The notes under the pieces were generated by a model that was given only the letters and a program-made list of their open reading frames with translations, was not told where the DNA came from and ran no database searches. DNA of 64,000 bases from Helianthus annuus. Lineage: Eukaryota > Streptophyta > Magnoliopsida > Asterales > Asteraceae. The DNA lies in assembly GCF_002127325.2 (NCBI RefSeq), contig NC_035436.2, positions 108,213,591-108,277,590 of the forward strand. The letters run 5' to 3'. Both the position numbers and the translations under genes were made by a program. Shown in pieces: positions 24,919 to 55,151 of this stretch (its first letter is position 1; every line of letters starts with the position of its first letter).

Positions 24919-26058
24919 ATGCCTCCTCGACGCGACAACCAGATAGCTACTGCCGAGCTGGCGGAGATTATTGCGCAGCAGATGGCTGCTCAATTCCCAA
25001 ATCTATTCGCTCAATGGAACCAAGCCAACAACAACAACAATGGTATATGCAAATACAAGGATTTTAACTCGGCCAAGCCACTCAAGTTCAGTGGTTCTGA
25101 AGGAGCAACTGGGCTTCTTCAGTGGTTCGAGAGCATCGAGAACACTTTTCGCCACGTGCAGTGTCCGGATAATCGCAAGGTCGACTTTTCTTCAAGCGTG
25201 TTTCAGAAGAGGGCTCTTACATGGTGGAATGGGGTTATGAGAGATCAAGGTGCAGAAGTTGCTCTAGCTCAGACATGGGCTGAACTGAGAGCTCTTATGA
25301 TGAGGGAGTTTTGTCCTCGTCATGAACAACGGGCGTTGGAGAAAGAATTTGATGTTTTGAAGCAAGATAGTGGCGAGCACAGGGCTTATACTGATAGATT
25401 TGAGGAGTTGAGTCTGCTTTGCCCAACTATGGTTACCCCACTCGATAAGGCCATCGAAAGGTATATCGACGGCCTACCTGACTCAGTACAAGACATCCTC
25501 ATTGGTAACAACCCTACCACACTCCGTCAGGCAATCGAGTTATCAGCGACACTGACTGAGTCGCAGATTCGAAAGAATAAGCTATACAGGAAGGGCGACA
25601 AGGGCAAGAAACAGTCTGCTGACAAGGAAAATAGCAAGAAAGGTCAAAACAAGAAGGGAAAGGATTCTGGTTCCTCAAGGGGGTCAAGGAAGCGTAAGGC
25701 TTCCCAAAACTATGCTGTCACTGCCCAAGCTAACCAGGCAGCTCCCAACCAGCCTCCAGCAAAGAAGCCCTATTCAGGAAGTGCACCTTTGTGCAATCAA
25801 TGCAACAGTCACCATCAGCCGCAGTATCAGTGCCGTTTCTGTACTAACTGTGGAAAGTCGGGTCATCTTGCCGATGTTTGTCGGTTTGCTCAGAATCGCG
25901 CAGTTCAGAACCCTGCGCAACAAGTTGCTCAGCAACAGGGTCAGGCTGCACGACCAAACTACCCACCAGGTGCTTGTTATAACTGTGGGGATCTGACCCA
26001 CTACAGAAATCGGTGTCCAAGACTAGCCAACCAGAACCAGAATCAGGCTCAGGCTTGA
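24919..26058 (+). CDS. TE4 Gag (capsid and nucleocapsid)
   Basis: 379 residues from ATG (MPPRRDNQ). The retrotransposon Gag capsid fold is indicated by LKFSGSEGATGLLQWFES, LTWWNG and REFCPRHEQRALEKEF. A basic lysine-rich linker follows, then two CCHC zinc knuckles (CTNCGKSGHLADVC and CYNCGDLTHYRNRC) that would bind genomic RNA. The N-terminal stretch runs straight into the conserved region without the intron seen in TE5-TE7. It ends with TGA at 26056-26058, in frame with pol, where TE7 has arginine in ARGRVF. The ATG is preferred over earlier in-frame codons because it gives a typical MPPRR start right after the leader. Confidence 0.9.
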   Translation: MPPRRDNQIATAELAEIIAQQMAAQFPNLFAQWNQANNNNNGICKYKDFNSAKPLKFSGSEGATGLLQWFESIENTFRHVQCPDNRKVDFSSSVFQKRALTWWNGVMRDQGAEVALAQTWAELRALMMREFCPRHEQRALEKEFDVLKQDSGEHRAYTDRFEELSLLCPTMVTPLDKAIERYIDGLPDSVQDILIGNNPTTLRQAIELSATLTESQIRKNKLYRKGDKGKKQSADKENSKKGQNKKGKDSGSSRGSRKRKASQNYAVTAQANQAAPNQPPAKKPYSGSAPLCNQCNSHHQPQYQCRFCTNCGKSGHLADVCRFAQNRAVQNPAQQVAQQQGQAARPNYPPGACYNCGDLTHYRNRCPRLANQNQNQAQA

Positions 26059-34324: not shown

Positions 34325-34905
34325 CGCCTGGGCACTAGGCCCAATGTGAGTCGGATCGCTTAGTCATGCTTCATAATTGGAAAAACGAGCACCGTGGAAA
34401 TACATGCCACTCAGCCAAAGGAAGATGATGGAGAGTTGACCGAAATGCGCACTAAATACTTTTCGAGAGATCTCCTCCAAATCACTGGTATGGCTATCGA
34501 AATCGTGAGCATCAGCATGTAGGTTCCAGATCCAAGTGGTAGTTTCAGGGCCTTTAGCTATTGTTCTTGAGAAATGACCCGGTCTAGCCCATTCCTCGAA
34601 TGAAGTTTTTATGTGATCCCTATCTACCAAAATTTTTACTTCTGGTTCCGGCGAACGAATAATCATTGAGTCCTCCTCTTTCCGGACAACACATACAAAG
34701 AGACCCGCCAACAGTCAAATAATTAGTGAATCTCGGAGAGATATTTCTATTATATAATAAGTTTCTTTCTCTTCTAGTTTTCTATCTCCCATCTATCTAT
34801 TTTCTTTAGTTATTCACTAGAGCAATTATGATCTGGAAGTCGATCCGGGGCAAGTGTTCGGATCTATTATGACATAGCCATGAGGCGCTCAACGGACCTT
34901 TTTGA
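34325..34905 (-). other. Plastid DNA insertion (psaA 5' end and leader)
   Basis: About 580 bp of plastid-type sequence: the first about 113 codons of psaA on the minus strand, then its untranslated leader including CTAGAGCAATTATGATCTGG and GGCAAGTGTTCGGATC. The left edge is near GCCTGGGCACTAGGCCC; the right edge is near ATCTTATAAAAACC, where the TE5 gag sequence starts. Edges are approximate. It is a nuclear plastid insertion because it sits inside retrotransposon DNA. Confidence 0.88.
34327..34666 (-). pseudogene. psaA: psaA fragment (photosystem I P700 apoprotein A1)
   Basis: From ATG at 34664-34666 it reads [11 protein letters not shown], then the well-known N-terminus with [38 protein letters not shown] and [15 protein letters not shown]. 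After YEA the expected TGG (Trp) is TGA, a stop. The match continues about ten codons beyond it and then breaks off. The full protein has about 750 residues, so this is a small fragment. It has no function here. Confidence 0.93.
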
Positions 34906-36200
34906 TCTTATAAAAACCTTTCTGACTTTAGATTTGCCTACCAACGAGGCAGAACTCCAAGGAATCATTGCTTCCGCCATAGCGCAGTATGCAGCCTCAC
35001 AAGGAGGAACCAGCGGGAGCAATTCGAACAACAACGGCAATAACAATCCACCCCATGGTAATGTTAAGTCGTTTGAGACATACTACGATACATTTGGATA
35101 TTTATAGCACGTCCGCTAATACCATTTGTATATTCTAACGTATGTGCAGGGTGCACTTACAAACAATTTCTCGATTGCAAGCCCGTGAATTTCGACGGCA
35201 CAGGAGGTGCTGTTGCGTTTGTCAGATGGGTAGAGAAGACTGAGTCTGTTCTTAGAATGAGCAAGTGTGCTCCCGAGCAACAAGTGACCTACATCTCAGG
35301 GCTATTTCTAGACAGAGCCCTATCTTGGTGGAATTTATAAGTGCAAACTCTTGGTGAAGCCGCTGCTTATGCGATGTCATGGAATGAGCAAAGGAGCTCA
35401 TGCGAAGGAAGTACTGGTCACGCGCTGAAATTCAAAAGCTGGAGACTGAGTTTTGGCATCTAAAAATGGAAGGCCCCAAGATTGCGGAGTATGTTCAGAG
35501 ATTCCACGATTTGTCCCACGTAGTGCCATACATGGTTACACCGGAGTTCAAACGCATCGAGCGCTTTATCTGGGGATTAGCACCTCAGATCATGAGTATG
35601 GGTACTACCTCCAAGCCTGCGACAATCACAGAAGCCTTTGATCTCAGTGTGGCTCTTACTGAGGAGGCCATTCGCTTGAACAAGTTTTCGAATATTGAGT
35701 AGAAGAAGAAGGAGACTCACGTAGAGTCGTCTGGTGAGAATAAAAGGAAATTCTCAAACTTCAAGCAGGGTACAAGCAATGTTGGCAAGGGAGGTGAATC
35801 AAGCACGCTGGCAAAGGCTGCAACGGGTGTTGAAAACAAAGGAAAAGGTTATATGGGCACACTACCCAAGTGTAACACATGCCAGCGCCATCATTCTGGC
35901 TGGTGTGGACCAAAAACATGTGAAGCTTGTGGGAAAGTTGGCCACTAGAAGGATAATTGCTGGGTTAGTGGTGGTCGGGGTGGTCAAGGAGGTCTTGGTA
36001 ATAGGAACAACAACTGTGGTGGTAATGGCAATCGTCCGCAAGGGAAAAATGGCGGAAATGGAAACCGTGGGAACGTTGCGAACCAAGCTGGGAATGGAAA
36101 TCGCAACCAAAACAACACTCAATGTGGGAAGGGAAATGGCCAAGGGCCAGGATGCTTTAATTGTGGAGGTATTGGGCACTTTAAGAGGGAATTCCCAAAA
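34906..36200 (+). pseudogene. TE5 Gag (truncated, broken)
   Basis: The N-terminal part LPTNEAELQGIIASAIAQYAA is followed by an asparagine-rich stretch, a putative intron (35058-35149), and the capsid region CTYKQFLDCKP, RALSWWN, and an EAYTKR-like EYVQRFHDLS. Zinc-knuckle remnants (CHKC-like and GCFNCGGIGHFKR..) lie near 35925 and 36150. There is a TAA after LSWWN (about 35338), a one-base frame shift near 35390, a TAG at about 35701, and further breaks in the linker. Confidence 0.8.
35058..35149 (+). other. Putative phase-1 gag intron in TE5
   Basis: CATG/GTAATG to TATGTGCAG/GG, 92 bp, with TATTCTAAC as a likely branch point 13-20 bases upstream of the acceptor. Removal joins the N-terminal exon to CTYKQFLDC in frame (phase 1). 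Left in, it brings in a stop. TE6 and TE7 have introns at the same place and phase. Confidence 0.75.
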
Positions 36201-39832: not shown

Positions 39833-39837
39833 GAAAG
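39833..39837. repeat. Target-site duplication GAAAG of TE7 (left)
   Basis: GAAAG is repeated at 50050-50054. The uninterrupted site is visible in the other TE6 LTR at 57416-57420. Confidence 0.95.
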
Positions 39838-40115
39838 TGTGACACCCCAGGAAAACCGGGAAAACCATGCAACTTAACTAGCTTCCTCAGTGAGTGCCAT
39901 CAAATTTCGGGACGAAATTTCTTTCAACTTGGGGATGATGTGACAACTCGAAATTTAGAACCTTTCGTTGTAACTTGCTTGTACGTTATGTGACTAGTTT
40001 AAATGATAACGTGAACCTTTTTATGTGATAAGTGCTTTGTTACGTGTGTATTGTATTTATATGTGTACGTGTTATATGTGAACCGAGAACCCGACACGAA
40101 ACAACAAGGAACCCG

Positions 40116-40139
40116 ACTCGAGACCATGAGGTCTCGAGT
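40116..40139. repeat. 24-bp palindrome in TE7 U3
   Basis: Arms ACTCGAGACC and GGTCTCGAGT around ATGA. It lies just upstream of the TGGGCC cluster; the copy in the 3' LTR is at 47699-47722. Confidence 0.8.
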
Positions 40140-40155
40140 GACTAGTAATCGGTTT

Positions 40156-40256
40156 TGGGCCTTGGGCCGAGAACCTTTGGCCGGTTGGGCCTTTGGGCCG
40201 TAAACCCCACTCGAAACCCACTAAGGGTGCACACTTGGAACTAGCCTATATATAAA
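40156..40256 (+). promoter_or_regulatory. TE7 promoter: four TGGGCC words and TATA box
   Basis: TGGGCC at 40156, 40163, 40186 and 40194, then TATATATAAA at 40247-40256. TGGGCY words (site II) are known plant promoter elements bound by TCP factors. Spacing of 50-90 bp upstream of TATA is typical. Transcription would begin near 40280. Confidence 0.65.
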
Positions 40257-41027
40257 CTACCCTTAGTTAGTTCTTGCCATTTGTTGAACAATACAACACA
40301 CACACTCTCCTACTTCTCTCTCTAAGCCTTAAGAACACAAACACACCTCCAAGACTCTCGGATCTAATCGGTTAGCACAAGGACTCTCGGGTTTGGAACT
40401 TTGGATCGGCACACACACACCTCACCAACCGGTTAGTATTTCTTGTTGGATATTGTTGAATGCATAAGTGTCAAATATGTTCATGATGTGTTTGTGCTTG
40501 AATAAATGTATGATGAGATTATGTGACAATATGTTAAGTTGTTAAGTTTTACATAATGTTTTGAAAAAGAAATCGGTTCATGAATGTTTCTTATTATGAG
40601 TGGAACTATACATATTTGATGTTAAAAATGGGTTCATGGTATGACAAAAAGGTGAATGATGATATTGGTTGCATTTGGGTTTGATCCGAAAAGTTTGGGT
40701 GTTTATACTAAGAAAAATCGGCTAATAAATATGGTTGTCAAGTAGGATGCATGCTAGAAAATTGTATCTTGATGGTTGTTCATGATTTTGGGTGAATAAG
40801 TGTTGTTTATGTTATGAAGAACTTGAATATATGCTTTGAATATGTGAAGAACACTTTGAATGATAGTTAAGAATGTGAAAACCCTTGTGATTTTGATCCA
40901 TCTTTGACTAGTAACCTGATTAGGAAAACTGTTAGTGGAATGCTATTGGTAGTTTCCGGATTTGGGCCTGATTATACTGTACCATTAATCTGACCATCTG
41001 CATCAACACGTGAACTTGAAAACGACT

Positions 41028-41280
41028 GCTACCGACTCGCAATCACGCAGTTGCGACTCGCAACCACAGCGTGATGACTCGAGACCACGCGGTTGCGACT
41101 CGCAACCATAGCAGGACAAGCCGAAACCACAGGTTACGAGTCCCGTTGCGACTCGAGACCTCAGCATGATGAACCGAGACTACGGTTGCGACACCGGTTG
41201 CGACTCGCAACCATCCATAATCAACACACAGCATGACTCGAGACCATGCTTGCGAGTCCGGTTGCGACTCGAGACCACAC
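41028..41280. repeat. GACTCGCAACC array in TE7 5' LTR
   Basis: About 15 units such as CGGTTGCGACTCGCAACC and GACTCGAGACC. It lies between the promoter and the GTGAGT site, so in the transcribed leader; the copy is at 48611-48863. Confidence 0.85.
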
Positions 41281-41547
41281 TTTTTGGGCCTTAGTTAATG
41301 GGCCAGACTGATGGGCTTCTGTGTTAACTGCTTTTACGTGTTTGGGCCTAAGTAGTTGGGCTGAACTTGTGAACCGTATGTGCTACTGTTGACTGTTAAC
41401 TGTTACTGCTAAACGTGCTTGCCAAACATGTTGAACATTTGTGCACTACTTGGTTCGAATCTGATTATACGTGATATCCGTGTTAGGACGTTATTGACTA
41501 CTTGCGACTTGATTGACTTTCTGTGTTTGACTGCCGAGCAAACCAAG

Positions 41548-42188
41548 GTGAGTTCACACCCTTTACAAAGCATGGGATTCCCTGGGTTGGGAACGGGGTT
41601 AAGGAACGTGGTTCCTCGTCTACCTTGGGTAGGACGTCAGTGGTTCAGGAATGTGATTCCTCGTCCGGATGGACGGATAAACGTACTAGACTAAAACTCT
41701 ATCACGAAGTCCCTCCTTTTTGTATCGACTAATCGCCGGGCCAATGGCGAGCGGGTCATTAGTTAGATAGCGCTATTTAGGTCTGACAAGCCTCACACCG
41801 TGCCGCAGAGGACGGGCGTGAACTAATGGATCTGGGGCACGTCAATGATGATAGACATTGATGTTTTCAGGGCACATAAACATGACTACAGTCAGCAATC
41901 GATACGGTAACGAGTCTAGTATACACATGGGGTAGCCCCCACGGCTGGAGAGCCAGATGATGTACATGGGGTAGCCCCCACGGCCGAAATGCCTGATAAC
42001 TACATGGGGTAGCCCCCACGGCCGGAGTGCCGGAGTAACTGGGAACGAACTGGTCACGTTTTTAAACTATGGGGTAACCCCCACGGCAGGATGCCAGATA
42101 AAGTAAACTGTTTTCGAAACAACTAAAACGAACGCCCACCCGTGAACTCACTCAACTAGTTGTTGACTCGTTACTACATGCTTTGCAG
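41548..42188 (+). other. Putative leader intron in TE7 5' LTR
   Basis: ACCAAG/GTGAGT to ACATGCTTTGCAG/GACC, 641 bp, lying about 1.3 kb after the TATA box. GTTGACTCGTTACTAC before the acceptor could hold a branch point. The CTCAACTAGTTGTTGACT block just upstream of the acceptor is conserved in TE1 and, with changes, in TE5, TE6 and TE9. Splicing is inferred. Confidence 0.55.
41926..42100 (+). repeat. GGGGTAGCCCCCACGG hairpin array in TE7 leader
   Basis: Four units of ATGGGGTAGCCCCCACGG..GCC spaced 40-60 bp apart. GGGG and CCCC within each unit can pair. Copy at about 49509-49683. Confidence 0.85.
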
Positions 42189-42469
42189 GACCATAGGTAC
42201 TCAGTGGGAGCTTGCATGGAGGAGGATCGTTGTGGGACAGGGATTGCTACAAGACTATGTTAAACTTGAAACTTTTGGAACTTATGTTATAACTTTAAAC
42301 TTATGCTTCCGCTTGCAACTTAACTTGTTTGTTTTGAAACACCAATTGTGATGGTTAAACTTTTATAACTACTTATATGCTTGTTCAGTATGATTGGTGG
42401 CTGGATCCTGGTCAGTCACGCCCTCGGAGCGGGCGTTATCCGCAGGTGGATTTTGGGGGTGTGACAGAT

Positions 42470-42482
42470 TGGTATCAGAGCC
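42470..42482 (+). other. TE7 primer binding site (iMet tRNA)
   Basis: TGGTATCAGAGCC, three bases after the LTR end. Confidence 0.96.
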
Positions 42483-42774
42483 ATTGGTTATAGTGAACTT
42501 GGTTTTAATAAAGGAGAAACGTTTTTGTTAAAACCAGACTATAACCGGTTTAGTGCTCAACGGTCCACAACGACACTTCGCTCCTCATGCAAGGCTCGAC
42601 GTTCTAGGTAATATGATGTATGTATATTGCCTACTTGTTAGTTACGTAGTACATTGCTCATGGCATGCTTGATTAGTATAGCTACTGTTGTTTGAACGCG
42701 TGTGTACTTACTCTGTCCTACTATCGTGCTTTCGCGAACCTCTCTCACACGTATTGCTTTTATTATGAAGAACC
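42483..42774 (+). other. TE7 untranslated leader after the primer site
   Basis: About 290 bp with no ORF of note. It includes a self-complementary TATAGTGAACTTGGTTTTA..TTAAAACCAGACTATA pair near 42490-42545, which recurs next to the primer sites of TE2, TE3 and TE6 and could fold the primer-site region. Confidence 0.6.
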
Positions 42775-45700
42775 ATGTCTGGACGCGTTAACATGACACA
42801 AGCCCAGTTGACGGCTTTGATCAACGAGCGAGTTGCCGCAGCGCTCGCAGCTGCACACGCAGGAGGTATATCCTGCAGTCCGAAATTGTCCTAGGATCAT
42901 TTGGATCCTACTCTCGTGAACCAACCTTTGTGTTAAACTCTGTCTTTTCTTTCACCTACCTTAGGTCAGGCACCGGTGTGCACTTTTAAGACTTTTATGG
43001 ACTGTCGACCCACGACTTTTAGCGGCACTGAAGGAGCAGTAGGTCTCCTACACTGGTTTGAGAAACTGGAGTCTGTGTTCGAAATGTGCGAATGCCCTGA
43101 AGCGCGCAGGGTGAAGTATGCTACTGGTACTCTCGAGGGTTTGGCCCTCACGTGGTGGAATGCTCAAGTGCAGATGTTAGGGTTGGTTGCTGCCAACGCC
43201 ACCCCATGGGAAACTTTCAAGGAAATGATCAGGGAGGAATACTGCAGTCGTGACGACATTCACAAACTGGAAGATGAGTTCTACAATCTTAAGATGTCGG
43301 GGTCAGAAATTGAGGCATACACTAAGAGATCGCATGAGCTTGCTTTGTTGTGTCCTACTATGGTGGATCCTCCCTACAAGCGAATTGAACTCTATCTCAA
43401 GGGCTTGGTGCCAGAGATCCAAAGTCATGTGACTTCAGCAAGGTTGACTACTATCCAGCAGGTTGTACAGTTGGCTCACCGTCTTACTGACCAAGCGGTG
43501 GAGCAGAACAAGTTACCGAAGCGTATAGGTGCTGCAACTACTTCTGGTGCTTCTAGTGGGGATAAACGGAAATGGGATGGAACTTCAAGCAGGGGTTCAA
43601 CTTCAGTGCAAACTCAGTCTCAGCAGAGAAAGACGGACGATCACAAGAGCCCCAGTCAGCAGTCGTCTGGTGGTCAAAGTCATGGTGGATACAAGGGGAA
43701 TCACCCCAAGTGCAATCGCTGCAGCCTACACCACAGTGGGCCATGCACCAGGGGCAACTGTCATCGATGCAACAAGCCTGGTCATGTTGCAAAGGATTGC
43801 AGAAGCGCATACCCCGTCAACCAGAATCGTCAGCAACCTCAGCAGAATCAGCGACAGCAGCAGGGTAACAACAAAGGGTGCTTTCAGTGTGGAGCTGAAG
43901 GTCATTTCAAGAAAGATTGTCCCCAACTGAACCAGAACAACAACAACAACCAGGGGAATGGTAACAATGGAAACAACAACAATGGTGCTAGGGGACGAGT
44001 GTTCGTGATTGGTCAAGGTGAAGCAAGGAATGATCCCAACGTGGTGACGGGTAAGTTCCTTCTCGACGACTTTTATGTTACAGTCTTATTTGATTCGGGT
44101 GCCGATACTAGCTATGTGTCACTAGAAGTTAGTAAGATGCTTAAGCGTATTCCTACACCCCTGAGCGACAAGCACACCGTAGAGCTAGCTAATGGTAAGA
44201 GTTTGGAAGCCTCACACGTAGTCAAGGGTTGCCAGCTTATTCTCGCTAACCAGACCTTCTCTATCGATCTTATTCCTATTGTCTTGGGTAGTTTCGACGT
44301 TGTCATTGGGATGGATTGGTTATCCCAACACCGAGCAGAGATTCTTTGCAACGAGAAGATCGTTCGTATTCCTGGTCTAGGTAGTGAACCTCTCATGATT
44401 CGTGGCGACAAGAGAAGTGCTGTTGAGAACATTATCTCTCTTCTTAAGGCTCAGAAGTGCTTACGAAAGGGCCACACTGCGATTTTGGCTCTAGTTACTG
44501 ATACCACAGAGAAGGAGAAGAAGTTAGAAGATTTTCCCGTTGTACGCGACTATCCTGAGGTATTCCCTGAGGAATTACCTGGTCTTCCGCCCCATCGCCA
44601 AGTCGAGTTTCAGATTGATCTAGCTCCTGGAGCCGCGCCTGTAGCCCGTGCACCTTATCGTTTAGCGCCATCAGAGTTGGAAGAACTCTCCACGCAACTA
44701 CAAGAACTCTTGGATAAGGGTTTTATTCGTCCTAGCTCATCGCCTTGGGGAGCTCCAGTGTTATTTGTGAAGAAGAAGGACGGTACCTTCAGAATGTGTA
44801 TCGACTATCGCGAACTCAACAAGGTGACTGTGAAGAATCGTTATCCTCTACCGCGTATTGACGACTTGTTCGACCAGTTGCAGGGGTCGAGCTACTATTC
44901 AAAGATCGATCTGAGATCGGGATATCATCAGCTGAGAGTTCGGGAAGAGGATGTCTCTAAGACGGCCTTTAGAACTCGTTATGGGCACTATGAGTTTCTG
45001 GTCATGCCGTTTGGGCTGACGAACGCACCGGCAGTTTTTATGGATTTGATGAATCGAGTGTGCAAGCCGTACCTGGATAAGTTTGTTATAGTCTTTATCG
45101 ACGACATCCTGATCTATTCTAAGAGCAAGGAAGAGCACGAACAACATCTACGACTTATTTTGGAACTCCTTCGGAAGGAACAGCTTTACGCGAAATTCTC
45201 GAAATGCGACTTCTGGCTTCGAGAGGTCCATTTCCTAGGGCATGTGGTGAACAAGGATGGGATTCACGTTGATCCATCCAAAGTGGAATCTATTAAGGAC
45301 TGGCCTGCGCCTCGCACACCAAAGGAAATTCGCCAATTTTTGGGATTGGCAGGTTACTACAGGAGATTCATTAAGGATTTTTCTAAGATCGCGCAGCCTC
45401 TCACGTTGTTAACACAGAAAGGCGTTGTTTATCATTGGGGAAACGCACAAGAGTTAGCTTTTCAGCATCTAAAGGATAGACTTTGTAGTGCACCTATCCT
45501 TTCATTGCCAGAGGGCACAGAAGATTTTGTGGTTTACTGTGATGCATCAATTCAAGGTCTTGGTTGTGTATTGATGCAACGAGATAAAGTCATAGCCTAC
45601 GCCTCACGACAACTCAAAGTTCACGAGAAGAACTACACGACACATGATTTGGAACTGGGAGCTGTTGTTTTCGCACTTAAACTATGGCGGCATTACCTGT

Positions 45701-47460
45701 ACGGAACCAAGTGCGCCATCTACACCGACCACAGAAGTTTAGAACACATATTCAAGCAGAAGGAACTGAATATGCGGCAACGACGATGGGTCGAACTGCT
45801 GAATGATTACGAGTGCTCTATCAGGTATCACCCGGGCAAGGCCAATGTTGTGGCAGACGCCCTCAGTCGAAAGGACACTACGCCTAAGCGTGTAAGAGCT
45901 TTACAACTCACGATCCATTCTAGTCTACCTTCGCAAATACGAGCTGCTCAGATAGAAGCACTGAAGCCAGAAAACGTTAGAGCTGAAGCTCTACGCGGGT
46001 CAAGGCAACGCTTAGAACAGAAGGAAGACGGTGCTTATTATGTAACAGGACGCATTTGGGTCCCACTCTATGGCGATTTACGAGAACTTGTGATGGATGA
46101 AGCGCACAAATCTCGCTACTCGGTACACCCTGGTTCGGACAAGATGTACCACGATATTAAAACTACGTATTGGTGGCCTAGCATGAAGGCCCACATAGCA
46201 ACTTATGTCAGCAAGTGTTTGACTTGTGCGAGAGTTAAGACGGAATATCAGAAACCTTCAGGCCTACTTCAGCAACCAGAGATACCACAATGGAAATGGG
46301 AGCAAATTTCCATGGATTTCGTTACTGGCCTACCTAGATCACAGCGCGGAAACGATACTATCTGGGTGATCGTGGATCGACTCACGAAATCCGCACACTT
46401 TTTGGCAATCAAGGAAACGGATAAGTTCTCCACTCTAGCGGAGATATACCTCAAGGAAGTTGTTTCGAGGCACGGGGTGCCCACTTCTATCATCTCTGAT
46501 CGAGATGCACGTTTTACTTCGGAACTGTGGCAGGCAATGCACAAGTCTTTTGGCTCACGTTTAGATATGAGCACAGCGTATCACCCACAGACGGACGGGC
46601 AGTCCGAGCGAACTATTCAGACCTTAGAAGACATGCTTCGCGCTTGTGTAATCGACTTTGGCAACAGCTGGGAAAGACATCTGCCACTTGTAGAATTTTC
46701 GTATAATAACAGCTACCACACCAGCATTAAAGCTGCTCCGTTTGAGGCATTGTACGGACGTAAATGCCGGTCACCCCTCTGTTGGGCAGAGGTGGGGGAT
46801 AGTCAAATCACTGGTCCAGAACATGTGGTAGACACTACTGAGCGGATTGCTCAAATACGACAACGCATGGCGGCCGCTCGTGACCGTCAGAAGGCCTACG
46901 CCGATAAGGGCAGGAAACCACTTGAGCTCCAGGTTGGGGAGCGGGTATTACTCAAAGTTTCACCCTGGAAGGGTGTGGTTCGTTTTGGTAAACGCGGCAA
47001 ACTCAACCCACGATACGTTGGACCTTTCGAAATCCTTGAGAAAATAGGCAAGGTGGCTTACAGACTGAAATTACCAGCAGAACTCGGTGCAGTTCACAAC
47101 GTTTTCCATGTGTCGAATCTGAAGAAGTGTCTGTCAGATGAGACGCACGTAGTTCCTCTGAAGGAACTCACGATCGACGAACAGTTGAAAATCGTCGAAG
47201 AACCTGTCGAGATCACGGACCGGGATGTTAAGGTCCTCAAGAGCACTAGAATACCTCTTGTTCGAGTTCGTTGGAACTCACGTCGCGGCCCAGAGTTTAC
47301 CTGGGAGCGCGAAGATCGGATGAAACAAAAGTATCCCCAACTGTTTGAGAACAGTACAAACGCTACTGAGGCTGAAGCTACGGAATTTCGGGACGAAATT
47401 CCAGATCAACGGGGGGTGGATGTGACACCCCAGGAAAACCGGGAAAACCATGCAACTTAA
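42775..47460 (+). CDS. TE7 Gag-Pol polyprotein (one intron, 1,528 residues)
   Basis: Exons 42775-42865 and 42965-47460 join in frame (phase 1). Exon 1 starts [12 protein letters not shown], the same start as in TE6. Approximate residues: capsid 35-250; CCHC knuckles near 295-309 and 336-349; protease DSGAD near 407; RT 570-800 with FIDD near 742; RNase H from about 884 (VVYCDAS); integrase finger 1085-1116; integrase triad D1148, D1209, E1245 (35 residues between the last two); [14 protein letters not shown], then a chromodomain-like tail ([18 protein letters not shown]) near 1450-1491. No stop or frameshift is seen. The stop lies 40 bases inside the 3' LTR. One frame for gag and pol means that a protease must cut the product and that any gag excess must be set another way. 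Confidence 0.93.
42866..42964 (+). other. Putative phase-1 gag intron in TE7
   Basis: GGAG/GTATAT to CTACCTTAG/GT, 99 bp, with a pyrimidine-rich end (GTCTTTTCTTTCACC). It contains an in-frame TAG at about 42892. Removal joins exon 1 to QAPVCTF. The capsid part would otherwise lack an ATG near its start. TE6 has the same arrangement (91 bp) and TE5 a third (92 bp). Confidence 0.78.
47382..47420 (+). other. TE7 inverted repeat and outer polypurine tract
   Basis: GGAATTTCGGGACGAAATTCC (47382-47402) is coding (EFRDEIP) and also palindromic. GGGGGGTGGA (47411-47420) ends at the LTR start and must have primed plus-strand DNA in this copy. The inner tract TTGGGGATGA lies in the LTR just before 47522. 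Confidence 0.8.
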
Positions 47461-50049
47461 CTAGCTTCCTCAGTGAGTGCCATCAAATTTCGGGACGAAA
47501 TTTCTTTCAACTTGGGGATGATGTGACAACTCGAAATTTAGAACCTTTCGTTGTAACTTGCTTGTACGTTATGTGACTAGTTTAAATGATAACGTGAACC
47601 TTTTTATGTGATAAGTGCTTTGTTACGTGTGTATTGTATTTATATGTGTACGTGTTATATGTGAACCGAGAACCCGACACGAAACAACAAGGAACCCGAC
47701 TCGAGACCATGAGGTCTCGAGTGACTAGTAATCGGTTTTGGGCCTTGGGCCGAGAACCTTTGGCCGGTTGGGCCTTTGGGCCGTAAACCCCACTCGAAAC
47801 CCACTAAGGGTGCACACTTGGAACTAGCCTATATATAAACTACCCTTAGTTAGTTCTTGCCATTTGTTGAACAATACAACACACACACTCTCCTACTTCT
47901 CTCTCTAAGCCTTAAGAACACAAACACACCTCCAAGACTCTCGGATCTAATCGGTTAGCACAAGGACTCTCGGGTTTGGAACTTTGGATCGGCACACACA
48001 CACCTCACCAACCGGTTAGTATTTCTTGTTGGATATTGTTGAATGCATAAGTGTCAAATATGTTCATGATGTGTTTGTGCTTGAATAAATGTATGATGAG
48101 ATTATGTGACAATATGTTAAGTTGTTAAGTTTTACATAATGTTTTGAAAAAGAAATCGGTTCATGAATGTTTCTTATTATGAGTGGAACTATACATATTT
48201 GATGTTAAAAATGGGTTCATGGTATGACAAAAAGGTGAATGATGATATTGGTTGCATTTGGGTTTGATCCGAAAAGTTTGGGTGTTTATACTAAGAAAAA
48301 TCGGCTAATAAATATGGTTGTCAAGTAGGATGCATGCTAGAAAATTGTATCTTGATGGTTGTTCATGATTTTGGGTGAATAAGTGTTGTTTATGTTATGA
48401 AGAACTTGAATATATGCTTTGAATATGTGAAGAACACTTTGAATGATAGTTAAGAATGTGAAAACCCTTGTGATTTTGATCCATCTTTGACTAGTAACCT
48501 GATTAGGAAAACTGTTAGTGGAATGCTATTGGTAGTTTCCGGATTTGGGCCTGATTATACTGTACCATTAATCTGACCATCTGCATCAACACGTGAACTT
48601 GAAAACGACTGCTACCGACTCGCAATCACGCAGTTGCGACTCGCAACCACAGCGTGATGACTCGAGACCACGCGGTTGCGACTCGCAACCATAGCAGGAC
48701 AAGCCGAAACCACAGGTTACGAGTCCCGTTGCGACTCGAGACCTCAGCATGATGAACCGAGACTACGGTTGCGACACCGGTTGCGACTCGCAACCATCCA
48801 TAATCAACACACAGCATGACTCGAGACCATGCTTGCGAGTCCGGTTGCGACTCGAGACCACACTTTTTGGGCCTTAGTTAATGGGCCAGACTGATGGGCT
48901 TCTGTGTTAACTGCTTTTACGTGTTTGGGCCTAAGTAGTTGGGCTGAACTTGTGAACCGTATGTGCTACTGTTGACTGTTAACTGTTACTGCTAAACGTG
49001 CTTGCCAAACATGTTGAACATTTGTGCACTACTTGGTTCGAATCTGATTATACGTGATATCCGTGTTAGGACGTTATTGACTACTTGCGACTTGATTGAC
49101 TTTCTGTGTTTGACTGCCGAGCAAACCAAGGTGAGTTCACACCCTTTACAAAGCATGGGATTCCCTGGGTTGGGAACGGGGTTAAGGAACGTGGTTCCTC
49201 GTCTACCTTGGGTAGGACGTCAGTGGTTCAGGAATGTGATTCCTCGTCCGGATGGACGGATAAACGTACTAGACTAAAACTCTATCACGAAGTCCCTCCT
49301 TTTTGTATCGACTAATCGCCGGGCCAATGGCGAGCGGGTCATTAGTTAGATAGCGCTATTTAGGTCTGACAAGCCTCACACCGTGCCGCAGAGGACGGGC
49401 GTGAACTAATGGATCTGGGGCACGTCAATGATGATAGACATTGATGTTTTCAGGGCACATAAACATGACTACAGTCAGCAATCGATACGGTAACGAGTCT
49501 AGTATACACATGGGGTAGCCCCCACGGCTGGAGAGCCAGATGATGTACATGGGGTAGCCCCCACGGCCGAAATGCCTGATAACTACATGGGGTAGCCCCC
49601 ACGGCCGGAGTGCCGGAGTAACTGGGAACGAACTGGTCACGTTTTTAAACTATGGGGTAACCCCCACGGCAGGATGCCAGATAAAGTAAACTGTTTTCGA
49701 AACAACTAAAACGAACGCCCACCCGTGAACTCACTCAACTAGTTGTTGACTCGTTACTACATGCTTTGCAGGACCATAGGTACTCAGTGGGAGCTTGCAT
49801 GGAGGAGGATCGTTGTGGGACAGGGATTGCTACAAGACTATGTTAAACTTGAAACTTTTGGAACTTATGTTATAACTTTAAACTTATGCTTCCGCTTGCA
49901 ACTTAACTTGTTTGTTTTGAAACACCAATTGTGATGGTTAAACTTTTATAACTACTTATATGCTTGTTCAGTATGATTGGTGGCTGGATCCTGGTCAGTC
50001 ACGCCCTCGGAGCGGGCGTTATCCGCAGGTGGATTTTGGGGGTGTGACA
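47421..50049 (+). repeat. TE7 3' LTR
   Basis: Offset 7,583 from the 5' LTR, same length, no mismatch noticed. It supplies the last 13 codons of gag-pol. Confidence 0.96.
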
Positions 50050-50054
50050 GAAAG

Positions 50055-53923: not shown

Positions 53924-55151
53924 TCAGTTGCCATGATTATTGTTGTTGTTGCGGTTCTGGTTCAACTGAGGGCAATCGCGTTTGAAGTGACCTTCAGCCC
54001 CACACTGGAAACATCCCCGGTTTCCACGCTGTGGCTGCTGTTGCTGCTGCTGGTTCTGTGGAGCTGGTTGCTGAGGCTGCTGATTCTGATTCGCAGGACG
54101 AGGGCTCCTACAGTCTTTGGCCTCGTGGCCCATCTTAAGACACCTTTGACAACGACCCTTGTTACACGGGCCGTGGTGATGCCTGTTGCAGTTGTGGCAC
54201 CTAGGTTGACTACCCTGATATCTCCTCTGTCTGTGACTACCAGAGGATTGCTGACTAGGACTCTGATAGTGGTCAATCTTCTGCTGCTGAGCTTGTGGCT
54301 GAACAGATGCTGAACCTTTACTAGAATCTCCATCCCATTTTCTTTTACTGTCACCAGATGTAGCAGGAGTAACTGAGGTGGTGACGTTAGCAGTAGCATT
54401 AACACGCTTGGGCAGTTTATTCTGATCCACTGCCTGATCGGTGATACGGTGAGCGAGACGCTGGATTTCCTGGATGTTGTCAAGATTAGCCGAAGTAACA
54501 TGGCTCTGGATCTCTGGCGCCAATCCCTTGAGATACATCTCAATGCGCTTGTATGGAGGGTCCACCATAGTTGGGCACAACACGGCCAGCTCATTCGACC
54601 GTTTAGTATACGCTTCGATTTCTGATCCAACCATTTTCAGGTTATACAGCTCGTCTTCCAGCTTGTGAATATCTTCACGTGTACAATACTCACGCTTGAT
54701 GAGTTCCTTGAAATCGTTCCATGGGGTGGCGTTAGCAGCTGCCAACCCTAAGATCTGGACTTGTGCGTTCCACCAAGTCAGTGCTATCCCCTCCAAAGTG
54801 CCGGTGGCAAACTTGACCTTGCGAGCCTCAGGGCACTCGCACATTTCGAATACTGATTCTAGCTTCTCGAACCAGTGGAGGAGTCCAACCGCTCCTTCTG
54901 TGCCGCTGAAAGAGTTTGGACGACAGTCCATGAAGTTCTTGAATGTGCAGACAGGCTGCTGCGCGTGTTGACCTATTGTGTACGAATAGGACGAGAGTTA
55001 AATACGAGAGTTATTGTAGGATCTAAAGATCCTAGTGTGTGCCTATACTGCAGGATATACTACCTGCTTGAGCTGCTGCAACTGCCGTAGCAACTTGAGC
55101 TTGAACGAGAGCCTCTAGCTGGGCTTGTGTCATGTTGATTCGTCCAGACAT
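53924..55151 (-). CDS. TE6 Gag (two exons)
   Basis: Exon 1 is 55064-55151 (MSGRINMTQAQLEALVQAQ, alanine-rich) and exon 2 is 53924-54972. The capsid region has [36 protein letters not shown] and [16 protein letters not shown]; a Gln- and Ser-rich linker follows, then CCHC knuckles CQRCLKMGHEAKDC and [14 protein letters not shown]. About 379 residues after splicing. The TGA comes in the Asn-rich linker after the last knuckle, a sensible place for a gag end. TE7, otherwise very similar, has no stop there. Confidence 0.9.
54973..55063 (-). other. Putative phase-1 gag intron in TE6
   Basis: Minus strand AAGCAG/GTAGTATATCC to CACAATAG/GTC, 91 bp. It interrupts the same codon position as in TE7 and, unspliced, leads to a stop. 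Sequence similarity with the TE7 intron is limited to the first bases (ATATCCTGCAGT) and the ATCCTA block, while the flanking exons are strongly alike. Confidence 0.78.

What the first reader, a model, noticed from the sequence alone, without database searches (positions are those of the whole stretch)
42775..42980. Conserved phase-1 intron in the gag gene of three different Gypsy elements
TE7 (42866-42964, 99 bp), TE6 (54973-55063, 91 bp, minus) and TE5 (35058-35149, 92 bp) each carry GT..AG segments after the first 29-60 codons of gag, in the same phase and at the same place before the conserved CTF/CTYK-F-DC capsid start. Introns differ in sequence and length while the exons are conserved. 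In TE7 splicing turns a 5'-less ORF into a complete 1,528-residue Gag-Pol with an ATG. TE4 lacks the intron. A retrotransposon that keeps an intron must reverse-transcribe unspliced RNA and translate spliced RNA, so splicing could split RNA between packaging and translation. Introns are known in Ogre elements (between gag-pro and pol), but I do not know of a report for this gag position in Tekay-like elements.
Basis: partly seen in the sequence, partly recalled or inferred. Interest (0 to 1): 0.86.

Follow-up and report, generated by a model that had tools for sequence, protein, structure and literature searches.

The report
Spliced gag intron in sunflower retrotransposons
Several large families of sunflower jumping genes carry a small intron at one fixed place near the start of their capsid gene, and genome copies that lack exactly this piece show that their RNA is spliced there and that both spliced and unspliced RNA can be copied back into DNA.

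Summary
TE7, TE6 and TE5 carry GT..AG segments of 99, 91 and 92 bp at the same gag codon, in phase 1; TE4 has none. The genome is Helianthus annuus. A fourth family has an 81-bp version there (6 of 95 hits read).

The strongest evidence is copies lacking exactly the predicted intron: TE7 junction at 6 loci, TE6 at 1,068, TE5-type at 572. A TE6 donor 3 nt away gives 0; a better microhomology across the same intron gives 0. Intron presence changes at least 11 times on a TE6/TE7 tree (5 forced by well-supported branches). One intronless copy checked at both ends is a complete LTR insertion. So splicing occurs as predicted, and spliced RNA is sometimes reverse-transcribed.

Exon 1 evolves as coding sequence. 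The TE6 intron is more conserved than leader or third positions; in TE7 mostly not significantly.

That unspliced RNA must be the template is too strong. That splicing divides RNA between translation and packaging is plausible but unshown. Closest known: BARE1, EVD, Ogre. My searches found no report of this site.

The parts
39838..42466 (+). TE7 5' LTR (TG..CA); 5-bp target duplication GAAAG at 39833-39837 and 50050-50054
   Evidence: 2,631-bp direct repeat at 100% identity, which runs 2 bp past the TG..CA end; ends and target duplication
42469..42482 (+). TE7 primer binding site TTGGTATCAGAGCC (initiator-Met type, recalled)
   Evidence: sequence directly behind the 5' LTR
42775..42865 (+). 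TE7 gag exon 1: ATG, 30 codons plus 1 base
   Evidence: codon-position pattern and pN/pS 0.16; length 91 in 20 of 20 sampled TE7-type copies
42866..42964 (+). TE7 gag intron, 99 bp, GTATAT..CTTAG, phase 1
   Evidence: absent, exactly, at 6 loci; acceptor AG kept in 20 of 20 sampled copies; 37% T against 18% and 27% in the flanking exon stretches
42965..47460 (+). TE7 gag-pol exon 2: capsid, zinc knuckle, protease, RT, RNase H, integrase, SH3; weak chromodomain
   Evidence: open frame; Pfam in three pieces; Chromo 13.5 bits, below the 25.1 cut-off
47421..50049 (+). TE7 3' LTR
55064..55151 (-). TE6 gag exon 1, 88 bp
   Evidence: pN/pS 0.13 in the TE6 set
54973..55063 (-). TE6 gag intron, 91 bp, donor CAG|GTAGTATAT, acceptor AATAG
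   Evidence: 1,068 intronless junctions with this donor, 0 with the donor 3 nt downstream; 6,838 exon 1|intron junctions
53924..54972 (-). TE6 gag exon 2 up to an in-frame stop
35058..35149 (+). TE5 gag intron, 92 bp
   Evidence: 20 of 20 fetched intron-bearing relatives carry it at 90-92 bp; 572 intronless TE5-type junctions
25042..25044 (+). TE4 Gly codon at the homologous site, no intron
   Evidence: continuous reading frame; capsid matches

Best explanation
A phase-1 spliceosomal intron of about 80-100 bp sits at one conserved codon near the 5' end of gag in at least four Ty3/Gypsy families of Helianthus annuus. The host spliceosome removes it from some of the element's RNA (shown by copies that lack exactly this piece). 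Splicing joins a short, selected N-terminal exon with the start codon to the capsid frame, so spliced RNA is the one that encodes complete Gag-Pol in TE7. Unspliced TE7 RNA read from the same ATG gives 39 codons and a stop, so it serves mainly as the genome that is packaged and reverse-transcribed (inferred). Spliced RNA is sometimes packaged too, which makes intronless elements; in TE6 and TE5 relatives some of these have multiplied.
For: Exact exon-exon junctions for TE7, TE6 and TE5 types. The 6 TE7-type loci keep LTR end, primer site and leader and lack only the 99 bp. L072 is otherwise identical to TE7 over the compared stretch and has LTR ends with target duplication TGAAG. At least 11 state changes on the tree, 5 forced by starred branches. 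Controls: 0 for the alternative donor, 0 for an 8-bp microhomology deletion across the same intron. Exon 1 pN/pS 0.16 and 0.13. Acceptor intact in 20 of 20. Same site in a fourth family. Unspliced TE7 frame stops at 42892.
Against: No RNA was examined. The TE7 and TE6 junctions have a 4-bp AGGT microhomology, so an exact DNA deletion would look the same at any one locus. Intronless TE6 lines multiply, so the intron is not needed for spread (possibly helped in trans). In the fourth family the intron has no stop, so unspliced RNA there can also encode Gag. An internal in-frame ATG at 42997 could start a shorter Gag-Pol without splicing. Published surveys, seen as passages, found Tekay elements absent or few among expressed sunflower elements (PMC7730604, PMC9784723).
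Confidence: 0.9

Rival explanations
1. The intron is real and spliced but passive: splicing is simply inefficient, and the intron persists because most templates are unspliced. It has no role in dividing RNA. (This and the next rival concern the function of the intron, not its reality.)
For: Intronless TE6 and TE5-type lines multiplied. TE4 has none. A stop-free version exists, so in that family unspliced RNA can be translated.
Against: The intron is kept at one site across four families despite repeated loss, and in TE6 it varies less than leader (1 of 83 against 24 of 115 informative columns) and third positions (27 of 90). In the TE7-type sample the same comparison is not significant for informative columns (p 0.27 and 0.078).
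Confidence: 0.45
2. The intron promotes expression (intron-mediated enhancement or splicing-coupled export), with the spliced RNA as the efficient mRNA.
For: Its position close to the start codon fits intron-mediated enhancement in plants (recalled, not tested). Conserved intron body in TE6.
Against: No expression data; intronless lines spread.
Confidence: 0.3
3. Intronless copies are DNA deletions by microhomology, not products of spliced RNA.
For: AGGT is shared by both intron ends in TE7 and TE6.
Against: In 42470-43900 of TE7 there are 306 four-bp, 80 five-bp, 34 six-bp and 4 seven-bp repeats at 60-160 bp spacing, so this pair is not special. A better 8-bp pair across the same TE6 intron gave 0 products. 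TE5-type junctions have at most 2 bp in common (by inspection). Only one such control deletion was searched.
Confidence: 0.04
4. No functional exon 1: gag starts at the internal ATG (42997 in TE7) and the GT..AG is part of the leader.
For: Several gene models start there (for example P0001). In-frame ATG present.
Against: Exon 1 pN/pS 0.13-0.16 and second-position diversity 0.004. Exon 1 length constant in 20 of 20 while intron length varies by single bases. Exact junctions.
Confidence: 0.05

Closest known systems
BARE1 (Ty1/copia, barley; PMC3735527, passages seen)
   Same: Short alternatively spliced intron (104 nt) in the gag region, CAG|GTAT donor, U-rich; spliced and unspliced RNA pools.
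   Different: Copia, intron at the 3' end of gag; splicing truncates to Gag only. [quoted passage not shown]
Ogre (Ty3/Gypsy Tat lineage; described in passages of PMC6317226)
   Same: Plant Gypsy element whose intron is removed from a subset of transcripts so that the polyprotein can be translated.
   Different: Intron lies between gag-pro and RT-RH-INT, in a non-chromovirus lineage (average 274 bp between the ORFs in that survey).
EVADE (Ty1/copia, Arabidopsis; passages of PMC12786077)
   Same: Splicing makes a distinct, preferentially translated RNA.
   Different: Makes short Gag by removing protease; here splicing makes full-length Gag-Pol.
CRR (Gypsy; named in a passage of PMC3735527)
   Same: Plant Gypsy element with spliced RNA.
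   Different: Described there as splicing that removes RT and makes two ORFs.
Cer1 (Ty3/Gypsy-related, C. elegans; PMC10309623, abstract and outline seen)
   Same: Gypsy-type element with spliced and unspliced RNAs of different fates.
   Different: Unspliced RNA encodes Gag and Pol and a spliced RNA encodes CERV, needed for export; here spliced RNA would be the Gag-Pol mRNA.

Membership tests
Ty3/Gypsy LTR retrotransposon | LTRs with target duplication, primer site, gag, domain order PR-RT-RH-INT | tested here: met
Chromovirus, Tekay clade | C-terminal chromodomain | tested here: inconclusive
   Chromo 13.5 bits (TE7) and 12.3 bits (TE6), cut-off 25.1
Chromovirus, Tekay clade | Place in an RT/INT tree with reference elements | not tested
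   no reference set was fetched
Spliceosomal intron | GT..AG, T-rich, exact removal in RNA-derived copies, flanking exons coding | tested here: met
Spliceosomal intron | Spliced reads in RNA | not testable with these tools
   no RNA data held
Ogre-type intron | Intron between gag-pro and RT-RH-INT | tested here: not met
   intron lies at codon 31 of gag
BARE1/EVD-type short-Gag splicing | Splicing removes or frame-shifts pol so that only Gag is made | tested here: not met
   the spliced frame continues into pol: 1,529 codons with stop

The most novel reading that the evidence does not exclude
The gag intron is a cis-acting fate switch. It holds or protects a packaging signal, so unspliced RNA becomes genome, while splicing both supplies the start-codon exon and removes the signal, dedicating that RNA to translation. 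Intronless lines would then be escapees that rely on other signals or on help in trans, and intron loss is a heritable record of how often the switch leaks.
Probability: 0.25. Interest if true: 0.85.

Novelty: new variant of a known kind. Interest (0 to 1): 0.62.

Why it matters
How one retrotransposon RNA serves both as mRNA and as genome is an old question. Here thousands of natural copies with and without the same intron, in the same genome, record which RNA was reverse-transcribed. That makes leakage of spliced RNA into the replication cycle countable, and it offers matched families that keep or lose the intron. It also warns annotators: some gene models of these gag genes start at the internal Met or appear to read into the intron.

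Tried and rejected
Intron hairpin as packaging or dimer signal: TE6 and TE7 introns share a 7-bp stem TAGGATC/GATCCTA, but the folds are no better than shuffles (z 0.29, -0.94, -0.48 for the three whole introns; -0.44 and -1.71 for the two sub-stretches). It is kept as an observation only.

A rate of packaging leak from 6 against 3,614 in TE7 was rejected. The junction pattern fits only the TE7 form of exon 2, and 17 of 20 sampled intron-bearing hits have a 9-bp longer form that it would miss, so the intronless share is underestimated. The TE6 counts (1,068 and 6,838) also come from two different 30-mers and are only a rough ratio.

Evidence for the site in other Asteraceae (Smallanthus, Mikania, Tagetes proteins) was set aside: N-termini of P0084, P0103 and P0110 look like exon 1 joined to capsid, but no DNA was seen, so spliced models and intronless copies cannot be told apart.

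The L001-L008 loci look like other gag types and were not used further.

Full report
Setting. The window lies in a 3.01-Gb genome. Its contig C4 is 208,320,189 bp, the same as the longest contig listed for Helianthus annuus protein P0023, so this is sunflower. TE7 is a complete Gypsy element: LTRs 39838-42466 and 47421-50049, 100% identical over the 2,631-bp repeat, target duplication GAAAG, and a single open exon 2 frame to 47460. Of 40 listed genome matches to 42700-43300, 15 are identical to TE7, counting the window copy itself, so it moved recently with the intron in place.

The intron. TE7: ATG exon 42775-42865, GT..AG 42866-42964, capsid frame from 42965, phase 1. TE6 and TE5 have segments of 91 and 92 bp at the matching codon in the same phase. 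TE4 reads straight through the matching Gly codon. Read unspliced, the TE7 ATG frame ends after 39 codons at 42892. The introns are richer in T than the flanking exon stretches compared (37, 32 and 36% against 14-27%).

Copies without the intron. A 30-mer of the TE7 exon-exon junction occurs at 6 places (4 exact, 2 with one mismatch). All 6 were fetched; each has LTR end, primer site, leader and gag in one piece and lacks only the 99 bp. L072 is otherwise identical to TE7 over the compared stretch. Its two ends were then read: target duplication TGAAG beside LTR ends TGTGACA, inside what reads like the gag of another element (by eye, because my exact-match search for the TE7 LTR ends failed: the start of its LTR differs from that of TE7). 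The ends of the other 5 were not checked. For TE6, the junction with donor CAG|GTAGT occurs 1,068 times, and the junction for a donor 3 nt further in, 0 times. TE5-type junctions occur 572 times. Intron-bearing junctions: 3,614 of TE7 type and 6,838 of TE6 type. These counts come from separate 30-mers with up to 3 mismatches and are not clean rates. In particular, 17 of 20 sampled TE7-type intron-bearing copies have a 9-bp longer exon 2 start that the TE7 junction pattern cannot match.

Independent losses. A tree of 79 rows (106 loci and the two window copies, identical ones collapsed; intron columns left out) needs 11 changes of intron state, 6 in TE6 and 5 in TE7. Starred branches force at least 5, and 0% of 200 bootstrap trees have a single change. 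Nearly half of the inner branches are weak (35 of 75 open), so 11 is a best estimate. Of the 20 intronless TE6 copies fetched (of 1,068), 11 form one branch and 5 another, so intronless lines have multiplied; 4 stand alone. Of 20 intronless TE5-type copies fetched (of 572), 17 form a separate intronless family, and 3 fall with the intron-bearing family, one at its base and one on a long branch; 3 changes, 2 forced. The direction (loss, not gain) rests on the exact same site in four families and on L072; the tree alone cannot show it.

Against DNA deletion. TE7 and TE6 intron ends share AGGT. But 306 four-bp and 118 longer repeats at 60-160 bp spacing exist in 1.4 kb of TE7, and the product of an 8-bp repeat pair across the same TE6 intron, 117 bp apart, was found 0 times against 1,068. 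Only this one control product was searched.

Selection. In exon 1, pN/pS is 0.16 (TE7 set, 56 rows; 9 synonymous and 4 other variants) and 0.13 (TE6 set, 50 rows; 11 and 4). The sets include intronless copies and the variant numbers are small. Exon 1 length is 91 in 20 of 20 TE7-type copies while the intron is 98-100; in the TE6 set exon 1 is 88 in 31 of 31 rows and the intron 90 or 91. The TE6 intron has 1 informative column of 83, against 24 of 115 in the leader and 27 of 90 third positions (Fisher 1.4e-5 and 4.2e-8). In the TE7-type sample it is 7 of 83 against 16 of 115 and 16 of 90 (p 0.27 and 0.078; all polymorphic columns against third positions p 0.0008, against leader p 0.41). Rows are related and the TE6 rows are best BLAST hits, so these p-values are guides only.

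A fourth family. Protein P0074 (Helianthus debilis) has 27 extra residues exactly at the site. Its relatives in this genome (95 listed matches) were read at 6 places. All 6 have an 81-bp GTAC..TTTTAG segment in phase 1 without a stop, 5 with donor G|GTACG or G|GTACA and one with A|GTACG (boundaries by eye). There the unspliced RNA stays readable. This speaks against a general rule that unspliced RNA cannot make Gag.

How it may work. Shown: exact removal, reverse transcription of spliced RNA, selected exon 1. Inferred: spliced RNA is the main Gag-Pol mRNA of TE7 and TE6; unspliced RNA is the main genome. Not shown: any difference in packaging, and any RNA at all.

Literature. Ten library searches were made, and passages of 11 papers plus the abstract and outline of a twelfth were seen. 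A 2019 survey mentions an intron for Ogre; its passages that name Tekay mention none (PMC6317226). A 2025 review says plant LTR elements generally lack introns, with Ogre and EVADE as notable exceptions (PMC12786077). A 2005 paper says that no introns upstream of gag had been reported in any LTR retroelement (PMC1142308). Sunflower studies report splicing in Copia elements and Tekay as absent or few among expressed elements (PMC7730604; PMC9784723), and DNA circles from Tekay elements (PMC11728184; 'splic' does not begin any word there). I found no report of this gag site; most subscription papers and all bioRxiv preprints are missing from the library, and the primary Ogre paper was not available.

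Noticed in passing
L155-L160; P0074: A further gag family has a stop-free 81-bp intron at the same site, so that both spliced and unspliced RNA keep the frame.
   Followed up: partly
42892-42910 and the TE6 intron: TE6 and TE7 introns share a 7-bp inverted repeat TAGGATC/GATCCTA with different loops; folding is not better than shuffles.
   Followed up: partly
34850-34935: The TE5 copy has unrelated sequence in place of its family's gag start; only the self-hit covers it among 40 hits.
   Followed up: no
L072 (C16), L163: An intronless copy identical to TE7 around gag has a different LTR start, which suggests an exchange of U3 between subfamilies.
   Followed up: no
P0001, P0074, P0081, P0114: Some public gene models of these gags start at the internal Met, and others appear to read into the intron.
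   Followed up: no
L140, L144, L149 against the other 17 of L135-L154: A 9-bp in-frame difference lies just behind the splice acceptor in TE7-type copies.
   Followed up: no
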